From Candidatus Cloacimonadota bacterium (lineage in GTDB: Bacteria > Cloacimonadota > Cloacimonadia > Cloacimonadales > WRIO01): a stretch of 47,204 nt of DNA. A program made the translations under genes and the position numbers. Where the stretch lies: assembly GCA_029553545.1 (NCBI GenBank), contig JAKPKU010000157.1:1-47204 (forward strand), read 5' to 3'. The notes beneath the pieces are model-generated. The model had not been told where the DNA came from and ran no database searches. It saw only the letters and a program-made list of their open reading frames with translations. Shown piece after piece: positions 17,586-47,075 of the stretch. Within the stretch, counting starts at the first letter, position 1. The number at the start of each line of letters is the position of its first letter.

Positions 17586-17712
17586 ATATAATCTCAATAA
17601 TGAAAATTAATTGGATTTGGGCAGGGGTAAATAATGAAAAATACAGCTTGATTTAGGTAAAAAGCCTCACTAAAGCTGTCAATCTCATTGAAAAATAATA
17701 CAAAAAAGCAAT
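17586..17712 (+). repeat. 127-bp perfect direct repeat, left copy
   Basis: Every base is identical to 42187-42313, in the same orientation, 24,601 bases away. It ends four bases before the proposed left prophage terminus. It holds the imperfect hairpin ACAGCTTgatTTAG...CTAAAGCTGT and an 18-codon reading frame beginning MKINWIWAG without an evident ribosome-binding site. See findings. Confidence 0.95.
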
Positions 17713-17715
17713 TAA

Positions 17716-17873
17716 TGTCGGAAGAAATTGTTGAGAAATCTGGAAGAAATTGTTGAGAAATTTCTCAACAATTATTGCCAACTTTTTGAGAAAAATACAG
17801 TTTTTGATGTTTTTTGTGCCAAATTTCTCAACAATTATTGCCAACTTTTTGAGAAAAATACAGTTTTTGATGT
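17716..17873 (+). repeat. Prophage left (late-side) end with transposase-site-like repeats
   Basis: Two copies of GAAGAAATTGTTGAGAAAT lie at 17721-17739 and 17743-17761, exactly 22 bases apart. They are followed by two identical 53-base direct repeats (17758-17810 and 17821-17873) that start with the inverted form AAATTTCTCAACAATTATTG. The same motif clusters at the other prophage end (41997-42103). By analogy with Mu R1-R3 these are likely binding sites for the transposase. The exact terminus is not certain; TGT at 17716-17718 fits the Mu-type TG start. Confidence 0.6.
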
Positions 17874-17892
17874 AAATAACATTTACACTTTC

Positions 17893-22942: not shown

Positions 22943-23584
22943 CTATCCTTTCCATACGTACAGGGCTGACCCGAAGCGTATTATTTCGCCTTCATTGCCT
23001 GTGGCTGGCAATGTTGTTTTCGAGGCTATCAGATCGTTTGTACCGAGCGTTACATCAGCAGACAGTGGTTTATTGTTGACTTTCCTGGTGGTATCCACCT
23101 TATTATCGAGAGCGGTTGTAAGATCTGTGATTTTCGATTGTGGCAGCGTAGGTATTCTATCTTCAACGAATGTACCCGATGTGATCTTCGATGCTGCCAG
23201 GTTTGGTATATCTGCTGCAGCAGGCGTCCAAGTGCTTGCTCTCGCACCTACATCGGAAGCTGCCAGCGTTACATCTGCAGAGAGCGCTTTCCCGTTGACT
23301 TTCCTGGTGGTATCCACCTTATTATCGAGAGCGGTTGTAAGATCTGTGATTTTCGATTGTGGCAGCGTAGGTATTCTATCTGCACCGAATGTACCCGATG
23401 TGATCTTCTCAGCTGCCAGGTTTGGTATATCCGCAGCCGCGAGCGAGCTTTTCAGCGCCAGAGACCCCAGGCCGTCAACTTTGGAATTCGGTACATTTTG
23501 CACCAATTTTTGGTTAGAATCGAGGGACGCAAGTCCTCCAGCTATGCCTATTTTCTCTTCGTCGAGAATTTCTTTCCATGCCAT
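22943..23584 (-). CDS. Repeat-containing tail fibre protein
   Basis: The 213-residue protein contains two copies of a 73-residue unit built around SKITDLTTALDNKVDTTRKVN, with ITSGTF and RIPTLPQ, a pattern common in phage tail fibre shafts. The C-terminal end GNEGEIIRFGSALYVWKG looks like a small tip domain. The two units are almost identical at DNA level. The ATG follows GAGGAGGCATAAA, which overlaps the end of the preceding 50-codon gene. Confidence 0.75.
   Translation of the reverse strand: MAWKEILDEEKIGIAGGLASLDSNQKLVQNVPNSKVDGLGSLALKSSLAAADIPNLAAEKITSGTFGADRIPTLPQSKITDLTTALDNKVDTTRKVNGKALSADVTLAASDVGARASTWTPAAADIPNLAASKITSGTFVEDRIPTLPQSKITDLTTALDNKVDTTRKVNNKPLSADVTLGTNDLIASKTTLPATGNEGEIIRFGSALYVWKG
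23076..23433 (-). repeat. 219-bp near-identical tandem repeat inside the fibre gene
   Basis: The segment beginning at 23076 recurs at 23295, a period of 219 bases (73 codons). About 87 bases are identical and the similarity continues with few changes. This DNA-level identity suggests recent duplication or ongoing gene conversion. Confidence 0.8.
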
Positions 23585-31932: not shown

Positions 31933-34491
31933 ATGAATTTTTTAAAAAAACTTTTTCAGACTGACAATATTGCCAATCAGACAGGGAAGTCACTGCTTAG
32001 TGTATCCCAAATCGATCAACAAAAACCATTATGGTCAGCAAAAATTACACCTGGTGAGATAGCAACTGCTCTCAGCTTCGCACGTTCAGGAAAGCTCAAG
32101 CATCTTCTATCTTTATACGCAAACTTATATTCGCTTGATGACAATCTCGCTGGAGATACCGATGTCAGAGTGGAGTCAATCAAGTCTGCTACATGGACTC
32201 TACCAGAAAATCTTAGCAAAAAACAAACTGAGTTTTTCAACAATTTCTTAGATGAATTCTTTCCCACTCTCATCGACCAGGCGACAGACTTAAAGCTCAC
32301 AGGTGCCCTTTTCAGGCAGATTATATATCGCCTGGAAAACGGATTATACACCGTCGACAAATTCATTAGCTATGAAAATCTTGATCTTCGAAATATCAAT
32401 GGTGAACTTGTTTTGTATATTGACGAAGTACCTCAATCCTTAGATGATGCCAAATTTATTCGTTTTTTGCAGGATTACAGCGTTTACGAGTCGATAGTCA
32501 AGTACTATGCCTTCTTTTCCTTTTCGCTCAATAATTGGGCTTCTTTTATCGAAATATATGGCAAACCTGTTCGCATTGGAAAATACAAGCCTGGCTCTTC
32601 AACAGAAGAAAAAAATATATTGAAACAAATGGTCAAAAATCTTGGAACAGATCTCGGAGCTGTAATCAGCGAAAACACCCTCATCGAGTTCGCGGACTTC
32701 AAAAATGCATCCGCAAACGCAAACCTGTATAGCGACCTACTTGACTTCTGCAAAAAAGCAGTGTCAAAAAGGATACTTGGACAAACTCTCACTACCAATA
32801 CAGAAACAACAGGCTCATACGCACAAGCCAAAGTACATGACATGGTGAGACAAGATATCCTTCGAGCTGACTTACGAGACTGTGAAAAGTATGTTTCTTG
32901 GATATGCACTAAGCTGAACAACCTGAACTTCAACAACGATAGCATCAAAATCAAACTCTCTACAGCCCAAAACGTAGAGCTATCAAGCAGGATCGACATC
33001 GACGTCAAACTCAACAATATCATCGAAATCGACCCTGAGTATTGGTATCAAACATACAATATCCCAATCCCAAAAAATGGGGCAAAAGCAAAAGAAATCC
33101 AAACTATGCAATTCCCTATGTGGGGAAAAGCAAACAATACACCAGAGCCTGTTGAAAGTGGTTATTTCCAAAATGGAAACAACCACTCTATTATTAGGAA
33201 ACTGAAAGAGATAAGAGAGAAAATAAACAATGCCAAATCATACAATGAGATCAAAAATATCAAATACCCTGTTGAACTTTACCATGCCGTAGCAAGCGAA
33301 ATGTATCAATCTGTGATGAATACATATACTGAAATTAGACTTGATTGCAAAAGTAATAGAAATATACAAAACAAAAAATACTTTGAGATTGATTGGACTC
33401 TGGAGGACATTGAAGCTCTTCACGCCTTCCGTGCGGAAACATTTATTGTAGCTGGTGTGTCCTCGCAAACGCTCATCGATATGATCAAAGAAGAAGCTGA
33501 AAAAGCATTCACACAAGGTACAACTTTTGACGATTTTAAGAGAACACTAAAGCTCAATGGATTCGAGCCAGAAAACCCATATCACCTCAGAACAAACTTC
33601 TACCAGGCAATCAATACCGCAAGAGCGGCTGCGGAGTGGAAGAACTACCAAACCACAAAAGAAATATTTCCATACTTAAGATACGTAACTATGGAAGATG
33701 AAGCTGTGAGAGATGAACACGCAGGTCTACACGGCATTGTCAGAGCGATTGACGATCCTTTTTGGCAAAAATACTATCCTCCCAACGATTGGGGATGTAG
33801 ATGTTATGTCGAACCTGTTGCCGCCGATGAAGCGGCAGGCGATACCAATTTCAATAAAATGCCGCCCACTGATTATCAGATAAAAGAAGAGTTTCAAAGG
33901 AATCCCGGAGAAGACAACTCTCTGTTTGGCTCTTGGCTTTCATGCGAAGATGCAAAAAACATAGCATCCTTCGAGCAAATTACGGCAAGATCAATAAGAC
34001 TCTACATTCACAACTCAGGGCAAAGATACTGTCCTCAGATGTACGAAAAAACATATAAAGACCTCAATTTAAAAGAATGGCAGGATATGAAAGAACACAA
34101 ACTCCCTGATCTTTTTCCTACTGATGGATTGTCAAAAGAAGAAATGCTCAAAGCATATAATGAGTATCTGGGAGACAGAACAATCCTAGACGCAACAAAT
34201 ACACCAATAAAGCTTAAATATGATAACAAGCTCGTTAATCCAAAATACGATAAATATAATGTGGCAAGACGAGTACAGCATATGTACTGTATTGAAGATG
34301 TTATCAAGGCTCCAGATGAAATTTGGCAGACAGATAAAAAAGAAGGAAGAGCATATTATTTTAAAAAGTATTCTAACAATGTTATAATTATGGCTGACTT
34401 TGTTAATGGCTCCTTAGAGTACTTCAACATATTTACTGCAAGGGATAGCTATATAAACAAACAAAGAAAGGGATTTATGATAAAAGCATAA
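31933..34491 (+). CDS. Portal-MuF-toxin-like triple fusion protein
   Basis: The 852-residue protein joins three parts. Residues about 1-400 are a DUF935 portal (Mu gp29), with TDVRVESIKSATWTLPE and GYFQNGNN nearby. Residues about 490-650 are a MuF/gp30 minor head domain, with NFYQAINTARAAAEWKNY, YVTMEDEAVRDEHAGLHG and NDWGCRCYVEP. Residues about 700-852 form an added C-terminal domain with RRVQHMYCIEDVIKAPDEIW, AYYFKKY and a final INKQRKGFMIKA, resembling phage BECR-fold RNase toxin domains. The start follows AAAGGAGGAAAT. No immunity gene is apparent. See findings. Confidence 0.88.
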   Translation: MNFLKKLFQTDNIANQTGKSLLSVSQIDQQKPLWSAKITPGEIATALSFARSGKLKHLLSLYANLYSLDDNLAGDTDVRVESIKSATWTLPENLSKKQTEFFNNFLDEFFPTLIDQATDLKLTGALFRQIIYRLENGLYTVDKFISYENLDLRNINGELVLYIDEVPQSLDDAKFIRFLQDYSVYESIVKYYAFFSFSLNNWASFIEIYGKPVRIGKYKPGSSTEEKNILKQMVKNLGTDLGAVISENTLIEFADFKNASANANLYSDLLDFCKKAVSKRILGQTLTTNTETTGSYAQAKVHDMVRQDILRADLRDCEKYVSWICTKLNNLNFNNDSIKIKLSTAQNVELSSRIDIDVKLNNIIEIDPEYWYQTYNIPIPKNGAKAKEIQTMQFPMWGKANNTPEPVESGYFQNGNNHSIIRKLKEIREKINNAKSYNEIKNIKYPVELYHAVASEMYQSVMNTYTEIRLDCKSNRNIQNKKYFEIDWTLEDIEALHAFRAETFIVAGVSSQTLIDMIKEEAEKAFTQGTTFDDFKRTLKLNGFEPENPYHLRTNFYQAINTARAAAEWKNYQTTKEIFPYLRYVTMEDEAVRDEHAGLHGIVRAIDDPFWQKYYPPNDWGCRCYVEPVAADEAAGDTNFNKMPPTDYQIKEEFQRNPGEDNSLFGSWLSCEDAKNIASFEQITARSIRLYIHNSGQRYCPQMYEKTYKDLNLKEWQDMKEHKLPDLFPTDGLSKEEMLKAYNEYLGDRTILDATNTPIKLKYDNKLVNPKYDKYNVARRVQHMYCIEDVIKAPDEIWQTDKKEGRAYYFKKYSNNVIIMADFVNGSLEYFNIFTARDSYINKQRKGFMIKA

Positions 34492-34516
34492 AAAAAGAGA
34501 GGCTTTGCAGCCTCTC
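34490..34516 (-). terminator. Terminator for the minus-strand early operon
   Basis: GAGAGGCT-TTGC-AGCCTCTC (34497-34516) is followed on the minus strand by a run of T. It begins five bases after the portal gene's stop and faces transcripts coming from the right, separating early and packaging blocks. Confidence 0.75.
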
Positions 34517-34649
34517 TCACAAATCTAAGTAAACCTTAGCCATTTACTCGTTTCCGCTTCGATCAAATGAGGGCTAAGCTCTCTCTCCACTTCTGATTAA
34601 CAATTTAAACAATTCTTCTCTTTTGTCAACTTATATTTTTAAAATCATA

Positions 34650-34680
34650 AAAAAAGGCACCCGTAGGTGCCTTTTTGTTT
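34650..34680. terminator. Bidirectional terminator between convergent blocks
   Basis: GGCACC-CGTA-GGTGCC (34656-34671) has A-runs before and T-runs after, so it can stop transcription in both directions. With the hairpin at 34497 it insulates the plus-strand packaging operon from the early operon. Confidence 0.85.
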
Positions 34681-34697
34681 TTGAAATGCCATCTTTT

Positions 34698-34728
34698 AGT
34701 GGTAGTCAACCATTAGTTGACAACCACT
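34698..34728. repeat. 13-bp inverted repeat after the small early gene
   Basis: AGTGGTAGTCAAC and GTTGACAACCACT (12 of 13 complementary) flank a CATTA loop. The repeat ends one base before the stop of the 53-aa gene. There is no T-run, so it is as likely an operator or mRNA-stability stem as a terminator. Confidence 0.6.
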
Positions 34729-34890
34729 CTATACGTTTTTCCCATAGTAGATATCTTTCACTCGAGAGTATGAAAGATAAAACTGCTTCGCAGTCAATTC
34801 AAGCGATACTGTCAATGAAAATCCGTTTTTTGTAATGTACTCTTGAATCTGATTTCTAATCTTTTCGTCCCTTTCTTTTCTTTGTTTCAC
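34729..34890 (-). CDS. Small putative DNA-binding protein (53 aa, GTG start)
   Basis: The gene starts with GTG at 34890 after GGAGGGCAAA, overlapping the TGA of the gene upstream (GTGA). The product is basic: KQRKERDEKIRNQIQEYI at the start and TAKQFYLSYSRVKDIYYGKN at the end, which looks like a short helix-turn-helix. It is the last early gene before the terminators and so in the place of a middle-gene activator, though it is much shorter than Mu Mor. The function is inference. Confidence 0.6.
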   Translation of the reverse strand: MKQRKERDEKIRNQIQEYITKNGFSLTVSLELTAKQFYLSYSRVKDIYYGKNV

Positions 34891-35108
34891 TTTGCCCTCC
34901 AAAAAAAGTGCTTTTCAGCATAGTCATCGCCTGCTTGTTTTCCCATATATTTTTCGACTATACTGCGGTTCAGGCGAATTTGGCTCACTTCCAAGAGGAA
35001 GTACTTTCGGAGGGCACAGTTTCGTTTTTCACTTCTGGTGCATATATTGAGCTCACATCGTGGAACACTGCACCCTACGCATGCCTGAGTTTGCTTGTAT
35101 TTGTCGAT
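34887..35108 (-). CDS. Small four-cysteine protein with likely AUC start (73 aa)
   Basis: An open frame runs from ATC at 35108 to TGA at 34887. The sequence AAGGAGGGGAAAA precedes the ATC at ideal spacing and follows the upstream stop. The product has a zinc-binding-like cluster CVGCSVPRCELNIC followed by a fifth Cys in KRNC, then a basic helical tail. No ATG, GTG or TTG occurs in frame before the cysteines. The GTGA overlap with the next gene supports translation. AUC starts are rare, so a sequencing error is possible. Confidence 0.55.
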   Translation of the reverse strand: MDKYKQTQACVGCSVPRCELNICTRSEKRNCALRKYFLLEVSQIRLNRSIVEKYMGKQAGDDYAEKHFFWRAK

Positions 35109-37009: not shown

Positions 37010-37377
37010 TTTGACTCCTTTCCGATGAGCGTCTTGTACTCTTCTTCGCTCATCGACAATACACTGTTTTCATATTGTGTCCCGTACTTGATCCTAAGAT
37101 CTTCTACAGGCATTTCATCGAATGTGGTTCTCTTTCTGCGTTCTTTTTTTTTGTCTGGTGTTCTTGGTCTGGGTGCCTTCCCTAATGGAATCCACCGATA
37201 TAGCTTCGGACGGTTTGATGCACATACTCGCTCTATCTCGCCATCTTCGAGCATCTTCTGAAAGACCCAGTGCACACTGGGTCTTGACAAGTTTGTATTA
37301 TCTGCCACTTCTGCTATGGAAAACGGCTTGCGAATTTGAATACAATATCGTTTGATTGTCTCTTCGTTACTGCTCAT
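37006..37377 (-). CDS. Winged-helix DNA-binding early protein
   Basis: The N-terminal 60 residues form a winged helix (FSIAEVADNTNLSRPSVHWV, then FQKMLEDGEIERV). A lysine/arginine-rich linker (PRTPDKKKERRKR) and acidic C-terminus follow. I chose the ATG at 37377, five bases after AAGGAG. A GTG at 37383 lies within that site. It overlaps muB by 11 bases and probably is a transcriptional regulator of the early operon. Confidence 0.75.
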   Translation of the reverse strand: MSSNEETIKRYCIQIRKPFSIAEVADNTNLSRPSVHWVFQKMLEDGEIERVCASNRPKLYRWIPLGKAPRPRTPDKKKERRKRTTFDEMPVEDLRIKYGTQYENSVLSMSEEEYKTLIGKESK

Positions 37378-38134
37378 TATCACTCCTTAGTGCTGAAGTG
37401 CTGATGACGATGTCTTTGACACCTATAGTGTTTAAGCCGTTCATTATTGCGATTTGCTCCATTTCTTTGATGAGCACTTCAAGGTGATGCAGGCTCCCGT
37501 TAGCCCTTTGAACGAGCATTGCTGCGACCTCCTTGTCGCACTGGATCTCCATTGTCTTGGAGATGATTGTTGTCATGTCTTCCTTCGATGCGATGTCGAA
37601 CTCGCAAAAGTTTGAGCAACGGTTGAAAAAGTGGCTATTGTATTTCTCTAAACGCTTCTTTGTGTCTTCTTCTCCTATCATTATGATCTTCGCATCTGCT
37701 ATGTCGCGGAAGTCTCGGATCAGCTCTATTATTTGCCATTTTCTGTGTTGTATTGCGAGGTTTATCTCATCGATTACAAAAATTAATGGCGTTCCACTAT
37801 TAGTTTGCTCTCTTTGATAAGTGACATCTTGAAAGAGGTCAATGACCGCCTTGGCCATAGCTGCTCCATCACCTTTGATGGAGTTCTCTCTGCCTGAGTA
37901 CTCATATGAGAGGCTTCGATATATCTCTCGCAAAAAGCTTTTTGGCGTTTCCATGGTTTCGATTCTATAGTAGCCCCAGCCTTGTGGGGCGAAGTTTTTC
38001 TTGGCGTAATGACTCTTGCCTGTACCTGGATGACCATATATGAGGGTCATATCCGCACCTTTTTTCATCTGCATACGACGAACCATATTGTTCGCCTTTT
38101 TTACATTTGTGGTTTCAATTAGAATGCTTTTCAC
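37367..38134 (-). CDS. MuB-like AAA+ ATPase, transposition target selector
   Basis: The MuB partner binds target DNA and delivers it to the transposase. The 255-residue protein has Walker A in IYGHPGTGKSHYAKK near residue 36, Walker B in LIFVIDEINLAI near residue 120, and sensor region KIIMIGEEDT. It begins with GTG at 38134 after GGAGGTAGAT. It sits directly downstream of the transposase gene, as in Mu. Confidence 0.92.
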   Translation of the reverse strand: MKSILIETTNVKKANNMVRRMQMKKGADMTLIYGHPGTGKSHYAKKNFAPQGWGYYRIETMETPKSFLREIYRSLSYEYSGRENSIKGDGAAMAKAVIDLFQDVTYQREQTNSGTPLIFVIDEINLAIQHRKWQIIELIRDFRDIADAKIIMIGEEDTKKRLEKYNSHFFNRCSNFCEFDIASKEDMTTIISKTMEIQCDKEVAAMLVQRANGSLHHLEVLIKEMEQIAIMNGLNTIGVKDIVISTSALRSDNEQ

Positions 38135-38222: not shown

Positions 38223-40595
38223 TTACTGAATGCCAAGCTTGCGGAAGGCTTCTTCCAGATCCTTCTGGGTATATTCTTGTTCTTCTTCTTCTCTGTTTTT
38301 TTGGATCTGGGCTTTTTGTGTCGCTTCCCATTCCGCAGCTTCAATTGCTTCTTGTGCCCTTCTTGCTGCTGCTGCCTTTTCTTCTCGTTCCTGGTCTGCA
38401 ATTGCTTTTTCTTGTATTTCTTCCCATTGTGCATCAGTAATTTCGACACTTATCTGTTTTTTATTTTCTCTGCGTATCGAACGACGCCCCTCAAGGCTTA
38501 TCTTGTCGTCTTTTCGCAATTCTTGTAGTCTGTTTTGCTCTTCTAATGTATTACTTGCCATTTCATCGAGTGCTCTTTGTTTGGCTCTAATACTCCCTGT
38601 ACCTATATGCTCTTGCATCGCAAGATATGCTAATTTGCCTTCTTTTTCACGACGGCGCGTATCAGCCAAAGCTTCCATGTCATCGCCAACTTGTAGTCCA
38701 GGCATGACCATTTTTGCCCTTTCTGGCAGCATCTCACCATGCTCTGATCCTACCAGAAGAGATCCAATATTCTTTTCATCGTACCAATACTTGATGCGAC
38801 GACCATTTAAGGCCAAAAACATTGGATGGCTGTAGTAGATTCCGTTGACCAATACCTCTCCACGTGATACTGTGGAGATTTGGGGATATGGATCTCTTAT
38901 CAATCTGTCTGCATCATATCGAGACAGTTTTTTCAGCGAAAGCTCTTCAAATACCTCGAGTGGACTCATTTTCTCGCCAACTGCATTTCTTAATACAGGA
39001 CGTTTTTCATTGTTCCACTCCGCCACAAAAAGCCCAAATAAACGGTCATATTCCTCCCAAGTGGGGATAGCTTTACCGTATTTCCTAAGAAGCGCTTGGT
39101 TTGTTTTTCTTAGCTCTTCGTGTCGTGTTTCGATTTTATTGCCGATCCATACTGGAAAAGCTTTTTCATATCGAGAGACACAAAAGCCCCAGAATGGCTC
39201 TATCATCTTCGACTCTGCATTGCCTGGTATCGTGAAACTATAGTTGATTCCCAAATTACGATAGAGTCCCATGTCCCCTTTGATTATCATTTCTATGGCT
39301 TTTGTCTTCGCTTGGCTACTACCTCGCTGCCCAGCAAATTCGTGTGGGCAATGATCTGTATTCTTATACGAACTGCCATTGTCAATTCGTATTGATGATG
39401 GAATGCCCCAGTTTTCAAGCGCGTCGCGCAAAGAGGTACGCACTGAATTTGGAGTCTCTGCTACTGTCATGCAATAGCCAACGATCATTCCCGTTGCTAT
39501 GTCATACCATACTACTACTATAGGTCGCACAAGAAATCTGAAGGATGGCCGATGAGCATAGAAGGGACTCAATATCAAGTTGTTCATCTTGTGTCCATCT
39601 GACTCGTATATGTCGCCTGGTGCCGCATTGTTGATGCGATGTACATGAGGCCGTACTGTATCCTTCCATGCTTTTTTGCCTTTGCTTATGCTCATTGCAA
39701 CGTCATCTTGACGTGCTTTTGCCACTATTGACGATACCGCTCGCAATGAAAGAGGCATCTCTTTTCCTACGTACGCTTTCTCACGTTCAATTAATCTGTA
39801 TATTTCTGTCGCATGTAGATTTCTAAAATCACATGCCATCTTTTTTACTTGATCTCTGAATGCTTTTGATGTTTCTTTAGGTCTTCCTATAGAAGTGCTT
39901 ATTTGTCGTTCATCGGCTAAAACCAAAGGTAGTTCTGGGTCCCCTGCGTCTCTATATGCTTTTTCCCAACGTCTAAGTGTTTGAATTGATACTTTTCCGA
40001 GTAGTCTCATCTCAGGTTCACACTCTTCCAAGAAATTTAGCCTTTCGACCAATCTCTCTGTCGCTTTTACAAGACTTATTTTATTGTTTTTTGCTTCTTG
40101 TCGAGCAGATCTATATGTACGTACAAGAACGAGTCTTGCCCACGCTATTTCTTTGGCATCGAAAGAAAGCATTGCAAATTCTTTTTCTTCGTCGCTCTTT
40201 GTTATTTCAGCTATAGCTATGCTTTTATTCTCTATTTCGAGGCTGTCAAGCTTGATCATTGTTTGAGGTTTTCCTATTAGATCTGGTTGGCTTATAGCAA
40301 GGACTTCTCCGTTATTTATCTTGCGATATAGTGTTCGCTTGCTCACCCCTGCCAAACTTGTAGCAGATTCGAGCGGTACCCAACCATCAACTGGTTGGGG
40401 TTCTTCGCTCGGCTGCTCAGCTTCTTTCACTTCCAAATCTGCCACTATATATATAAGGAGTGTTTTTGTCTTTCCATTATGATTGTTGTCAAATAATTCG
40501 TACTTCGTTTCATACTCGCCTGATTTGATGCGACGACGTATGGTTTTTGTCGTTACTTCAAGCTTTTTAGCAGCTTCTTTGACAGTCAGCCACAT
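38223..40595 (-). CDS. MuA-like DDE transposase
   Basis: The enzyme of integration and replicative transposition. The protein has about 790 residues. It starts with an excisionase-like HTH (WLTVKEAAKKLEVTTKTIRR), then a second HTH (ATSLAGVSKRTLYRKINNGE). The RNase-H core carries Asp in DIYESDGHKMNN (about 332), Asp in SIRIDNGSSYKN (about 405) and Glu in SKMIEPFWGF (about 466). The C-terminus is a highly charged coil. I chose the ATG at 40595 after AGGGAGATTGT. It overlaps the Ner-like gene. Confidence 0.94.
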   Translation of the reverse strand: MWLTVKEAAKKLEVTTKTIRRRIKSGEYETKYELFDNNHNGKTKTLLIYIVADLEVKEAEQPSEEPQPVDGWVPLESATSLAGVSKRTLYRKINNGEVLAISQPDLIGKPQTMIKLDSLEIENKSIAIAEITKSDEEKEFAMLSFDAKEIAWARLVLVRTYRSARQEAKNNKISLVKATERLVERLNFLEECEPEMRLLGKVSIQTLRRWEKAYRDAGDPELPLVLADERQISTSIGRPKETSKAFRDQVKKMACDFRNLHATEIYRLIEREKAYVGKEMPLSLRAVSSIVAKARQDDVAMSISKGKKAWKDTVRPHVHRINNAAPGDIYESDGHKMNNLILSPFYAHRPSFRFLVRPIVVVWYDIATGMIVGYCMTVAETPNSVRTSLRDALENWGIPSSIRIDNGSSYKNTDHCPHEFAGQRGSSQAKTKAIEMIIKGDMGLYRNLGINYSFTIPGNAESKMIEPFWGFCVSRYEKAFPVWIGNKIETRHEELRKTNQALLRKYGKAIPTWEEYDRLFGLFVAEWNNEKRPVLRNAVGEKMSPLEVFEELSLKKLSRYDADRLIRDPYPQISTVSRGEVLVNGIYYSHPMFLALNGRRIKYWYDEKNIGSLLVGSEHGEMLPERAKMVMPGLQVGDDMEALADTRRREKEGKLAYLAMQEHIGTGSIRAKQRALDEMASNTLEEQNRLQELRKDDKISLEGRRSIRRENKKQISVEITDAQWEEIQEKAIADQEREEKAAAARRAQEAIEAAEWEATQKAQIQKNREEEEQEYTQKDLEEAFRKLGIQ

Positions 40596-40777
40596 ACAAT
40601 CTCCCTTATTTTTTGGCATGTTTCGGCAGAGAGCTTTTCTACTGACTCTGTTTCAAGATAAGAAACAGCTCTTTGGGATGTCTTTGTTAATGCGCCGAGT
40701 TCCGCTTGTGTCAGTCTGTTGATCGCTCTGTAGACTCTTGCTTTTTCAGCTATTTTCAATTTTTCATCTTTTTTCAT
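40586..40777 (-). CDS. Ner-like HTH regulator
   Basis: This 63-residue Cro/Ner-type protein has RAINRLTQAELGALTKTSQR and AVSYLETESVEK, an XRE-type helix-turn-helix. It is the first gene of the early operon and diverges from the repressor gene, as ner does from c in Mu. The ATG at 40777 follows GAGGGTTTGTCA. It overlaps the transposase gene by 10 bases, so the two are probably translationally coupled. Confidence 0.85.
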   Translation of the reverse strand: MKKDEKLKIAEKARVYRAINRLTQAELGALTKTSQRAVSYLETESVEKLSAETCQKIREIVCG

Positions 40778-40789
40778 TGACAAACCCTC

Positions 40790-40887: not shown

Positions 40888-41316
40888 ATGAAAACAGGAG
40901 ACAGGTTAAAGGAAATTAGGAGAAAGCTAAAGCTTAGTCAAATAGCGTTTTCAGACTCTATAGGTGTTACGCAGCCTGCTATATCATTAATGGAAAAAAA
41001 TGCGTCAGCACCGTCAGCTGAAGTACTCAATAATATTCGAAAAACATATAATATTGATCTAAATTGGCTTTTGTCTGGGCAAGGTGAAATGTTCTTGACA
41101 AAAATAGAAGAAAAAAGCACTATCGAGACTCGGCTTATACAAAGTCGAGATGAACTGCAAAAACAAATTAACCAATTAAAAAAAAGCATTGCTGAGCTTG
41201 AAACTGCATATTCGCAAGAAAAAGAATACAGTCGCCAGCTTAATCAAGAACTTGCTCAGTGCATGAAAGACCTGGTATCGACGCAGAAACTGATCATTGA
41301 CCTACAAAAAAGGTAG
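40888..41316 (+). CDS. C-type repressor (XRE HTH plus coiled coil)
   Basis: The 142-residue protein has an N-terminal XRE domain with LSQIAFSDSIGVTQPAISLMEK and ends the HTH part at NIDLNWLLSGQGEMFL. The C-terminal half is a long coiled coil (ETRLIQSRDELQKQINQLKK) rather than a LexA-type peptidase, so induction by RecA is not expected. Divergence from the Ner-like gene toward the prophage end matches Mu c. The ATG follows AGGAGATATTA. Confidence 0.9.
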   Translation: MKTGDRLKEIRRKLKLSQIAFSDSIGVTQPAISLMEKNASAPSAEVLNNIRKTYNIDLNWLLSGQGEMFLTKIEEKSTIETRLIQSRDELQKQINQLKKSIAELETAYSQEKEYSRQLNQELAQCMKDLVSTQKLIIDLQKR

Positions 41317-41996
41317 TCAATATAATATGATGAAGTGAATATTAGTAGCTTCAATATTTAGTAGAGAACTTGGATAATCTTCTCCAGGGAAAAGAACGTA
41401 ATAAACTTTTTTTAAACGTTACTTTCTCTCAGATGAAACGATTGTAAACAATATTTACACCTAAATTTATGATAAAAAAGTCGATATTTGACCAAAAAAT
41501 GGCACTGTGATAAATGTCCATGTGATAAACCAAATGTCCATGTGATACTTTCTTTTATTTATCAATACTTTACGAGCCTACAGAATCAAAAACACACGAT
41601 TTTTGACCAAATAATGTCCATGTGATAAACCAAATGTCCATGTGATACTTTCTTTTATTTATCAATACTTTACGAGCACGAAACTGCAATAATGTCCATG
41701 TGATAAACCAAATGTCCATGTGATACTTTCTTTTATTTATCAATACTTTACGAGCTTGAAAAAAGTTGTGACAAAAAAAATGGCACAGTTGATGTGCCAG
41801 GAATGTGATATTTTGTGTTTTTTAAGAGTAATTTTTTGAGAAAATAGATCATCAGATGGACATTTGGCATTGTGATGAATTGATGGAATAGTTGATTTAT
41901 TTAGTTTTTAGATACTCTTTTAAACCTTGTCTGGATGCGATGTTCGATGATATTTTGTTTTGACATATAGCTTCATTTACATTTTATCAGATGCTC
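41317..41996. other. Non-coding early-end region with iterons
   Basis: No gene is supported in this stretch between the repressor gene and the end repeats. It contains the three 65-bp repeats at 41513-41755 and related motifs at 41761-41880, including GGCACAGTTGATGTGCC and GATGGACATTTGGCATTG. In Mu the corresponding stretch past c is shorter. Confidence 0.7.
41513..41755 (+). repeat. Three identical 65-bp repeats carrying paired iterons
   Basis: Copies at 41513-41577, 41613-41677 and 41691-41755 are identical. Each begins with AATGTCCATGTGATA, repeated exactly 20 bases later, and ends ATCAATACTTTACGAGC. Spacers are 35 and 13 bases. The six 15-base iterons are thus in pairs on one face of the helix. 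This suggests an array for a repressor, transposase enhancer or replication factor. Confidence 0.9.
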
Positions 41997-42110
41997 AATT
42001 TCTCAACAATTATTGCCAACTTTTTGAGAAAAATACAGATTATGAAATTTCTCAACAATTATTGCCAAAAAGGTACTTTTTCGATGAATTTCTCAACAAT
42101 TTCATTTTTT
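41997..42110 (+). repeat. Prophage right (early-side) end with transposase-site-like repeats
   Basis: The 42-base motif beginning AATTTCTCAACAATTATTG occurs at 41997-42038. Shorter forms follow at 42045-42067 and, truncated to AATTTCTCAACAATTTC, at 42087-42103. The last is inverted relative to the outermost sites of the left end, as expected of transposon termini. The outer terminus lies at or just after 42104-42110 by inference (a CA at 42111-42112 is a candidate). Another 75 bases separate it from the 127-bp repeat. Confidence 0.6.
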
Positions 42111-42186
42111 TCAAAATGCTTCCAAAGAAGCTCCAGTAGTGGCTTCCTTATCACTTGCTCATTTCTCATCTATTTCTTCCCCCCTT

Positions 42187-42313
42187 ATATAATCTCAATA
42201 ATGAAAATTAATTGGATTTGGGCAGGGGTAAATAATGAAAAATACAGCTTGATTTAGGTAAAAAGCCTCACTAAAGCTGTCAATCTCATTGAAAAATAAT
42301 ACAAAAAAGCAAT
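42187..42313 (+). repeat. 127-bp perfect direct repeat, right copy
   Basis: Identical at all 127 bases to 17586-17712, same orientation. It starts about 75 bases beyond the inferred prophage end. It is intact, so it is probably the original host-side copy or another copy of a dispersed host element. Confidence 0.95.
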
Positions 42314-42486
42314 ATGCATAATGTAAATCCAGACAAATTGTAAAAGATTAAATCTGTATTATGAAATAAAAAAAACAATACCCTCTATATATATAGGGCT
42401 TATAAAACGAGGTTTTTTGAAAACTATTTTTATCTAATTCAGCAGATGACTACTACAAGCGGGTTTAGGGGTGATTTTTTATTTTT

Positions 42487-42560
42487 CAACACACTTTTTA
42501 AAGCACTTGCAATACTGTTCCATGAGACATTTACGCAACTGATACATTCCTTTTTTTTTA
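42487..42560 (+). repeat. Isolated copy of the degenerate 75-85-bp repeat
   Basis: CAACACACTTTTTAAAGCAC through ACATTCCTTTTTTTTAA matches the tandem units at 46257-46500 in the same orientation with few differences. It is followed by another CAACACAC and an arm GGTCCTCGCTACGCTGCG that resembles the hairpin arms at 46523-46574. It is about 3.7 kb from the others, on the opposite side of the ORP-like operon. Confidence 0.85.
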
Positions 42561-42600
42561 ACAACACACCTTTGGTCCTCGCTACGCTGCGGGTTAGGAG

Positions 42601-42627
42601 CTTTCACATTCGTGAAAGGTTTTTTTA
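42601..42627 (+). terminator. Plus-strand rho-independent terminator
   Basis: CTTTCAC-ATTC-GTGAAAG followed by G and seven T. No gene on the plus strand ends here, so it may belong to the repeat element or terminate readthrough. Confidence 0.65.
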
Positions 42628-42769
42628 AAGGTAGTTACAACTTTCTCTATACTACAATACACTTTTTAAGCTTTATTATTCTTCAAGTCAGCAAATCAAA
42701 ATGGTAAAATACACATTAAAAACAATCCCTCTATATGTGAGTAATCATTATTAAGTCAAAATATATTAA

Positions 42770-46196: not shown

Positions 46197-46256
46197 AACA
46201 ATTTTTAATAAATCTATAAAAGCATTGATACCAGATGGATATGGTTACTTTTTTAA

Positions 46257-46500
46257 CAACACACCTTTTAAAGCACTTGCAATAATGTTCCTTGAGACAT
46301 TAACGCAACTGATACATTTCTTTTTTTTAAACAACACACTACAACACACCTTTTAAAGCACTTGCAATACTGTTCCATGAGACATTAACACAACTGATAC
46401 ATTTCTTTTTTTTAAACAACACACTACAACACACTTTCTAAAGCACTTGCAATACTGTTCCATGAGACATTAACACAACTGATACATTTCTTTTTTTAAT
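46257..46500 (+). repeat. Three tandem 85-bp repeats
   Basis: Units start at 46257, 46342 and 46427, a period of 85 bases. Each has AAAGCACTTGCAATACTGTT (or close), then CCATGAGACATTAACACAAC and a poly-T stretch. They match 42487-42560. Confidence 0.92.
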
Positions 46501-46522
46501 AAACCAGACAACACACGATTTT

Positions 46523-46574
46523 GATCCTCACTTCGTTGCGAAATAAAGTACCAAATCGCAATGGAGCGAGGACC
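46523..46574. repeat. Imperfect hairpin after the tandem repeats
   Basis: GATCCTCACTTCGTTGCG (46523-46540) and CGCAATGGAGCGAGGACC (46557-46574) are complementary at 14 of 18 positions. The same arm sequence follows the isolated repeat copy at 42573-42590. Confidence 0.65.
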
Positions 46575-46641
46575 AAATAGTTCTCTTTTTACAAAATTTT
46601 AACTCAATAGCGTAAATGATAATATGTCAGACATTTACCCC

Positions 46642-46705
46642 TTTGATTCCCGTTACATTCCCCTTGCTATCTTGGAGAATGCAAGGTAATCTAATAGGAA
46701 TCAAA
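46642..46705. repeat. Long imperfect inverted repeat
   Basis: TTTGATTCCCGTTACATTCC at 46642 onward and ATCTAATAGGAATCAAA at 46689-46705 pair over arms of about 25 bases with a 13-base loop. It may be an RNA stem or a remnant element. Confidence 0.55.
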
Positions 46706-46825
46706 AGGGAATCAAAAGGAGATTTATTCTGCTTTTTTGTTGATGTCTGTTTGTGTCAAGGAGACAGGTGTTTTGACACTTTCGCTTTTCACCTTCTCAG
46801 GCGGTCAGTGGTCGTTATATGCATT

Positions 46826-47075
46826 GGCAGCAACTATGTGCCATGGAACTATTTATCAAAAGCCTTAAATCCAAGTGTGTTACAGTGTGTTGTAAGTGTG
46901 TTGTCGTGTGTTGTTAAAAAAAAAGAATGTACCAGTTGTGATAGAGTGCCATGGAACAGTATTGCAAGTGCTTTAGAAAGTGCGTTGTAGTGTGTTGTTT
47001 AAAAAAAAGTTGATTATCTTGATCTATGTGCCATGGAACCGTTTGTCAAAGGCTTTAACCCTAAGAGGGTGTTGA
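46826..47075 (-). repeat. Inverted, diverged copies of the same repeat
   Basis: Three units carry GTGCCATGGAAC at 46839, 46947 and 47029. The middle one is close to the reverse complement of the units at 46257-46500. The outer two are more diverged but keep GTGCCATGGAAC-n-TCAAA-GC-TTA. Confidence 0.8.

What the first reader, a model, noticed from the sequence alone, without database searches (positions are those of the whole stretch)
41513..41755. Three identical 65-bp repeats with 20-bp-phased iterons at the early end
Each repeat holds two AATGTCCATGTGATA iterons exactly 20 bp apart and a fixed 30-base tail ending TTTACGAGC. Spacers are 35 and 13 bp and differ. Perfect identity suggests recent duplication or strong function. 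The array lies between the repressor gene and the transposon end, unlike the Mu operator/enhancer, which is between c and ner. It may bind the C repressor, the transposase or another early protein, or lock out superinfecting phages.
Basis: partly seen in the sequence, partly recalled or inferred. Interest (0 to 1): 0.66.

Follow-up and report, generated by a model that had tools for sequence, protein, structure and literature searches.

The report
Transposase-matched DNA enhancer in Mu-like phage
The triple repeat is probably a landing pad on which a Mu-like phage's own transposase gathers before the phage jumps; related phages carry the same kind of pad in other places, and the DNA word it is made of changes together with the DNA-reading part of the transposase.

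Summary
The tail holds a perfect IHF consensus (TATCAATACTTTA); three of the seven such sites in the window are these tails. Relatives explain the iteron. Its core, TGTCCA, forms 5-12-copy arrays beside or inside the transposase gene of other Mu-like elements. The core follows the recognition helix of an Xis/MerR-type (HTH_17) domain fused to the transposase or encoded just before it: KTxRR helices go with TGTC-CA, RTVWRY with TGTC-AC, one RTVWRR with TGTC-AA. The second pairing was predicted before it was looked at (7/7); both held in new loci (11/11 and 14/14). In one relative (L188) the motif lies inside the transposase gene in three reading frames, so it is kept as DNA. Best reading: a transpositional enhancer, working like Mu's but on the far side of the repressor gene and read by a different transposase domain. 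Shown: anatomy, IHF motif, helix-iteron covariation. Inferred: binding and enhancer action. A 2021 paper says the enhancer-binding domain "so far appears specific to Mu"; this argues otherwise.

The parts
41513..41577 (+). Unit 1: iterons 41513-41527 and 41533-41547, IHF consensus 41560-41572
41613..41677 (+). Unit 2: iterons 41613-41627 and 41633-41647, IHF consensus 41660-41672
41691..41755 (+). Unit 3: iterons 41691-41705 and 41711-41725, IHF consensus 41738-41750
41498..41512 (+). Degenerate iteron AATGGCACTGTGATA (3 mismatches), directly before unit 1
41850..41864 (-). Inverted iteron AATGTCCATCTGATG (2 mismatches)
41781..41799 (-). Intrinsic-terminator-like hairpin TGGCACA-TCAAC-TGTGCCA followed by T8 on the minus strand; would stop transcripts entering from the phage end
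38223..40619 (-). MuA-type transposase, 798 aa; proposed binder of the iterons
40440..40595 (-). N-terminal HTH_17/excisionase-type domain of the transposase (about residues 9-60) with recognition helix TTKTIRRRIKSGE
   Evidence: Pfam HTH_17 E 5.8e-8, NCBIfam excise, Xis-like model, covariation
37367..38134 (-). MuB-type ATPase
40586..40783 (-). Small HTH protein in the Ner position
40888..41316 (+). HTH_3 (cI-like) repressor with a C-terminal part resembling coiled coils
41997..42187 (.). Early-end region with probable transposase end sites (core TTGTTGAGAAATT, outermost GGAAGAAATAGATGAGAAAT on minus strand); phage terminus about 42187
   Evidence: terminus by inspection
17713..17880 (.). Late-end region with matching end sites; phage terminus 5'-TAATGTCGGAAGAAATTG about 17713
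   Evidence: terminus by inspection

Best explanation
The array is a transpositional enhancer of a Mu-like phage. The six (to eight) iterons TGTCCATGTGAT are bound, as head-to-tail pairs on one face of the helix (20-bp phase), by the Xis/MerR-type winged-helix domain at the N-terminus of the phage's MuA-type transposase. An IHF-family host protein bends the DNA at the end of each pair, so that three [pair + bend] modules wrap into a compact complex about 430-675 bp inside the early end. This loads transposase onto the phage's own DNA and helps bring the two phage ends together. Shown: the anatomy, the IHF consensus, matched arrays in relatives, and covariation of the iteron core with the recognition helix. 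Inferred: physical binding, bending, and stimulation of transposition.
For: Perfect IHF consensus in each tail, 3 of 7 in the window, P about 0.005 per 30-nt tail; host encodes an IHF-like protein. Closest relative L188 carries 12 copies of the same core, often at 20 bp, inside its transposase gene and in three reading frames. Pattern scan of 2.9 million viral contigs hits 7, of which 5 beside L188's own have a Mu-type transposase at the array. Helix-iteron covariation: in the discovery set 5/5 KTxRR loci and 0/24 others have the TGTCCA array; prediction noted, RTVWRY 7/7 with TGTCACA; out of sample 11/11 and 14/14; third helix RTVWRR with TGTCAAAG. HTH model most like Xis, BldC and Cox.
Against: No binding or transposition data. 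The position downstream of the repressor is not Mu's. Perfect IHF sites are seen only in the window array, not in relatives' arrays. Some TGTCACA loci have no HTH_17 found in the fetched stretch. L191 has TGTCCAGG repeats with a different helix. Related loci are not independent.
Confidence: 0.75

Rival explanations
1. The transposase-linked HTH_17 domain does bind the iterons, but the array is a transcriptional operator (auto-repression or anti-repression of early genes), not a transposition enhancer.
For: In L193-type phages the array lies just after the divergent early promoter region, at or in the start of the HTH gene. Mu's enhancer is itself an operator.
Against: In L188 the array lies well inside the gene, and in the window it lies beyond the 3' end of the repressor gene, about 900 bp from the transposase start, with no early gene next to it.
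Confidence: 0.13
2. The array is an operator or sink for the C repressor (immunity, superinfection exclusion).
For: It lies directly downstream of the repressor gene.
Against: The iteron is an asymmetric direct repeat, whereas the repressor is HTH_3 type; repressor recognition helices differ between array-bearing phages (TQPAISLMEKN, SPVTLSRYKAG, SSASLTRYKSG) although they share the core; the core tracks the HTH_17 helix instead.
Confidence: 0.06
3. The units are extra transposase end-binding (subterminal) sites, like L1-L3 of Mu.
For: The array is near the early end; DDE transposons often have repeated subterminal sites.
Against: The recognisable end sites have another sequence and are present at both ends, inverted; the iteron is absent from the late end.
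Confidence: 0.03
4. A recent, functionless duplication.
For: The copies are letter-identical; no other genome or contig searched has this exact array.
Against: Spacers differ in length and sequence, so it is no simple tandem; the core and 20-bp phase recur in distant relatives with diverged flanks.
Confidence: 0.03

Closest known systems
Phage Mu transpositional enhancer (IAS, operator/enhancer E)
   Same: Several short sites plus an IHF site near the repressor end; bound in Mu by the N-terminal winged-HTH subdomain I-alpha of the transposase (PMC3362531; PMC3820752).
   Different: Here it lies between the repressor gene and the phage end, not between repressor and early genes; three identical [direct-repeat pair + IHF] modules; the transposase domain is HTH_17/excisionase type and the repressor HTH_3 type, so the two need not share sites as they do in Mu.
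Xis/Cox/BldC-type winged-HTH proteins on direct repeats (lambda Xis sites X1 and X2, 20 bp apart: from memory)
   Same: Same fold class by model; head-to-tail direct repeats.
   Different: Here the domain is part of, or encoded with, a DDE transposase; no tyrosine recombinase is involved.
Transposable prophages of Leptospira and other non-Mu saltoviruses
   Same: MuA-type transposase; TA...TA termini as inferred for the window phage.
   Different: Reported to lack an enhancer-binding domain, said to be so far specific to Mu (PMC8705779).
Plasmid or phage origin iterons
   Same: Phased direct repeats with an IHF site.
   Different: No Rep-type initiator noted among the phage ORFs; a transposable phage replicates by transposition.

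Membership tests
Mu-type transpositional enhancer | Cluster of several short sites near the repressor end | tested here: met
   Six exact and two degenerate iterons
Mu-type transpositional enhancer | IHF site within the element | tested here: met
   Consensus in each unit; occupancy not tested
Mu-type transpositional enhancer | Sites are read by the N-terminal DNA-binding domain of the transposase | tested here: inconclusive
   Strong covariation of core with helix, but no binding assay
Mu-type transpositional enhancer | Lies in the operator region between c and ner | tested here: not met
   Lies between the repressor 3' end and the phage end
Mu-type transpositional enhancer | Repressor and transposase have homologous DNA-binding domains sharing the sites | tested here: not met
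   Repressor is HTH_3, transposase domain is HTH_17
Mu-type transpositional enhancer | Needed in cis for efficient transposition | not testable with these tools
   Needs a transposition assay
Transposase end sites (L/R sites) | Same sites at both ends, in inverted orientation | tested here: not met
   Iteron absent from the late end; other repeats meet this feature
cI-like repressor operator | Palindromic sites matched to the repressor's HTH | tested here: not met
   Iteron is asymmetric and direct; repressor helices do not covary with it

The most novel reading that the evidence does not exclude
A whole group of Mu-like phages uses a one-helix recognition code: the HTH_17 helix in or beside the transposase dictates the central dinucleotide of a TGTC-NN-AGTGST iteron (CA, AC or AA), and the matched array is carried next to, or even written into, the transposase's own coding sequence across reading frames. 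Transposase and enhancer thus evolve as matched, mutually exclusive pairs that keep related phages from activating each other.
Probability: 0.55. Interest if true: 0.85.

Novelty: new variant of a known kind. Interest (0 to 1): 0.78.

Why it matters
The transpositional enhancer has been treated as peculiar to Mu: a 2021 survey states that the enhancer-binding domain so far appears specific to Mu (PMC8705779). The data here point to enhancers of a different build in many Mu-like elements, with a readable protein-DNA code (three helix classes, three core dinucleotides) and arrays hidden in coding DNA. This makes enhancer function, its position independence and its role in keeping related transposable phages apart directly testable with natural pairs.

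Tried and rejected
Exact iteron search of IMG/VR: 81 single, scattered hits, no array, none with a related transposase. Transposase as single-protein query in viral and genome collections: nothing. Genus and family relatives: no intact array; G001 holds only fragments of the phage ends. Compact relatives L146-L151, L190 and phage phiRTG5: no similar array. Rfam: nothing above a gathering score. Array as a coded peptide: the minus-strand 57-aa ORF (41570-41743) repeats a peptide, but the 100-bp offset between units 1 and 2 breaks the frame; rejected. Naming the host: the genome-contig scan gave only a distant hit. Named-phage relatives of the HTH protein: none. Literature on iterons in transposable phages: none in the held library.

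Full report
THE OBSERVATION. The three 65-bp units are there and letter-identical, with spacers of 35 and 13 bp that differ in sequence. Each holds AATGTCCATGTGATA twice, 20 bp apart, and a 30-base tail. The exact iteron is absent elsewhere in the 2.88-Mb genome, and the clustering is far beyond shuffles. A degenerate iteron at 41498 and an inverted one at 41850 extend the element.

THE SETTING. The window holds a Mu-like prophage: MuA-type transposase (38223-40619, minus), MuB-type ATPase, a small HTH protein in the Ner position, and a divergent HTH_3 repressor (40888-41316, plus). Matching inverted end repeats place the phage at about 17713-42187, with termini 5'-TAANNNNGGAAGAAAT at both ends (by inspection). 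The array therefore lies between the 3' end of the repressor gene and the early-end sites (41997-42187), in non-coding DNA, next to a minus-strand terminator.

THE TAIL IS AN IHF-CONSENSUS SITE. The tail contains TATCAATACTTTA, a perfect match to WATCAANNNNTTR. Only seven such sites exist in the 47-kb window and three are these tails; a 30-nt stretch of this composition has one with P about 0.005. The host encodes three HU/IHF-family proteins, one of which scores best as IHF-alpha (87 bits, against 58 for HU-beta), below the curated cut-offs.

RELATIVES. Exact iteron searches gave nothing useful. The closest relative, L188 (IMG/VR), has a transposase 47% and a MuB 61% identical. Its transposase gene carries an insert of about 120 codons between two HTH_17-like domains with 12 copies of TGTCCAAT(T/C)G (minus strand), spaced 20 bp in several places. 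The core occurs in all three reading frames (8, 3 and 1 copies; peptides EQLDI, PIGHL, HNWTP), so selection acts on the DNA. A pattern made from the common core, TGTCCAWKTG-N10-TGTCCAWKTG, was then scanned over 2.9 million viral contigs. It hit seven: L188's own, five with a Mu-type transposase beside an array of TGTCCAAGTGGTT (L193, L194, L195, L197, L199; these form two close groups), and one without a transposase. In these phages the HTH_17 domain is in a short protein encoded just before the transposase. The array lies directly upstream of the HTH domain, in an open frame, with copies in three frames and one on the other strand. The first four sites keep the geometry 0, +30 (inverted), +101, +121 in eight different loci.

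COVARIATION. Loci fetched only by transposase homology were then typed. Five of 29 have a TGTCCA cluster (7-9 copies), and these are exactly the five whose HTH_17 recognition helix reads KTIRR, KTVRR or KTMRR, like the window (TTKTIRRRIKSGE) and L188 (NSKTIRRRLKKGE). Seven others have a helix reading RTVWRY. I noted the prediction that these should carry a different array before looking. All seven carry 5-10 copies of TGTCACA in the same place. A second set of loci from the phylum confirmed both pairings without exception among loci with an intact, scored helix: KTxRR 11/11 with TGTCCA; RTVWR[YF]/RTAWRY 14/14 with TGTCACA and none with a TGTCCA array. One locus with RTVWRR (L344) has TGTCAAAGTGCT. 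The cores line up as TGTC-CA-AGTGST, TGTC-AC-AGTGST and TGTC-AA-AGTGCT; the window variant is TGTC-CA-TGTGAT. Descent alone does not easily explain this: split-type KTxRR and RTVWRY elements are close relatives (transposases 52-72% identical), whereas the window's transposase is only 21-25% identical to the L193 type yet shares the KTxRR core.

STRUCTURE. A model of transposase residues 1-133 (mean pLDDT 64.5; the first HTH about 79-83) best matches mycobacteriophage Pukovnik Xis (probability 1.00, E 0.014), then BldC, a phage P2 DNA-binding protein and RdfS: small winged-HTH proteins of the excisionase/MerR kind. MuA I-alpha was not among the 50 matches listed, so resemblance to it is one of role, not of demonstrated homology.

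MECHANISM. The simplest account is that the transposase's N-terminal domain binds the iterons, IHF bends each module, and the complex acts as an enhancer that loads and orients transposase for end synapsis. The element lies next to the gene, inside the gene, or far from it in different phages, which suits an enhancer better than a promoter operator; an additional regulatory role is not excluded. Mu's enhancer is bound by MuA subdomain I-alpha (PMC3362531); Mu's operator/enhancer region and IHF sites are described in PMC3820752.

LIMITS. No binding data; related loci are not independent; several TGTCACA loci have no recognisable HTH_17 in the fetched stretch (L343, L345, L346, L347, L372, L375); L348 (KTIRR, domain match partial, 2 sites) was not counted; L191 has TGTCCAGGTTGC repeats with another helix and may be a coincidence, while L386 (helix KTIKRR, weak domain match) has TGTCCAGACTG copies and fits. 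Perfect IHF sites are a feature of the window array only. The paper library held nothing on such arrays; subscription journals are not covered.

VERDICT. Real, functional-looking, and a new variant of the Mu enhancer idea rather than a member by its strict definition, since position and repressor coupling are not met.

Noticed in passing
17586-17712 and 42187-42313: A perfect 127-bp direct repeat, found nowhere else in the genome, abuts both inferred phage termini exactly. It is far too long for a Mu-type 5-6-bp target duplication. It may reflect recombination between two insertions about 126 bp apart, or an assembly chimera (127 is a common assembler k).
   Followed up: partly
L157 (G001:C13), 243-1386: The same-genus genome G001 has jumbled fragments of a closely related phage (up to 93-96% identity to both phage ends and to 34339-34794) upstream of the same gene, mraZ: a possible insertion hot spot or old shared prophage.
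   Followed up: partly
42335-42665 and 46240-47060: A dispersed host repeat of about 100-150 bp (AAAGCACTTGCAATACTGTTCCATGAGACATT...) with some 40 or more places in this genome, some inverted or tandem.
   Followed up: no
L039/L150, L045, L058, L037: Transposase genes with other helix types carry other repeated words near their N-terminal coding region (TTGTTAAGTC x8; a 9-bp unit with TGCGAAC x9; ACTATCG x7; TTGGTTGCA), possibly further helix-iteron pairs.
   Followed up: no
34491-34900: Phage segment with hairpins after the 852-aa ORF; parts are found twice at 95-96% identity in G001's remnant; only sub-threshold Rfam sRNA matches.
   Followed up: no
23046-23226 and 23265-23445: A 181-nt tandem duplication (91% identical) inside a predicted structural (fibre-like) gene of the phage.
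   Followed up: no
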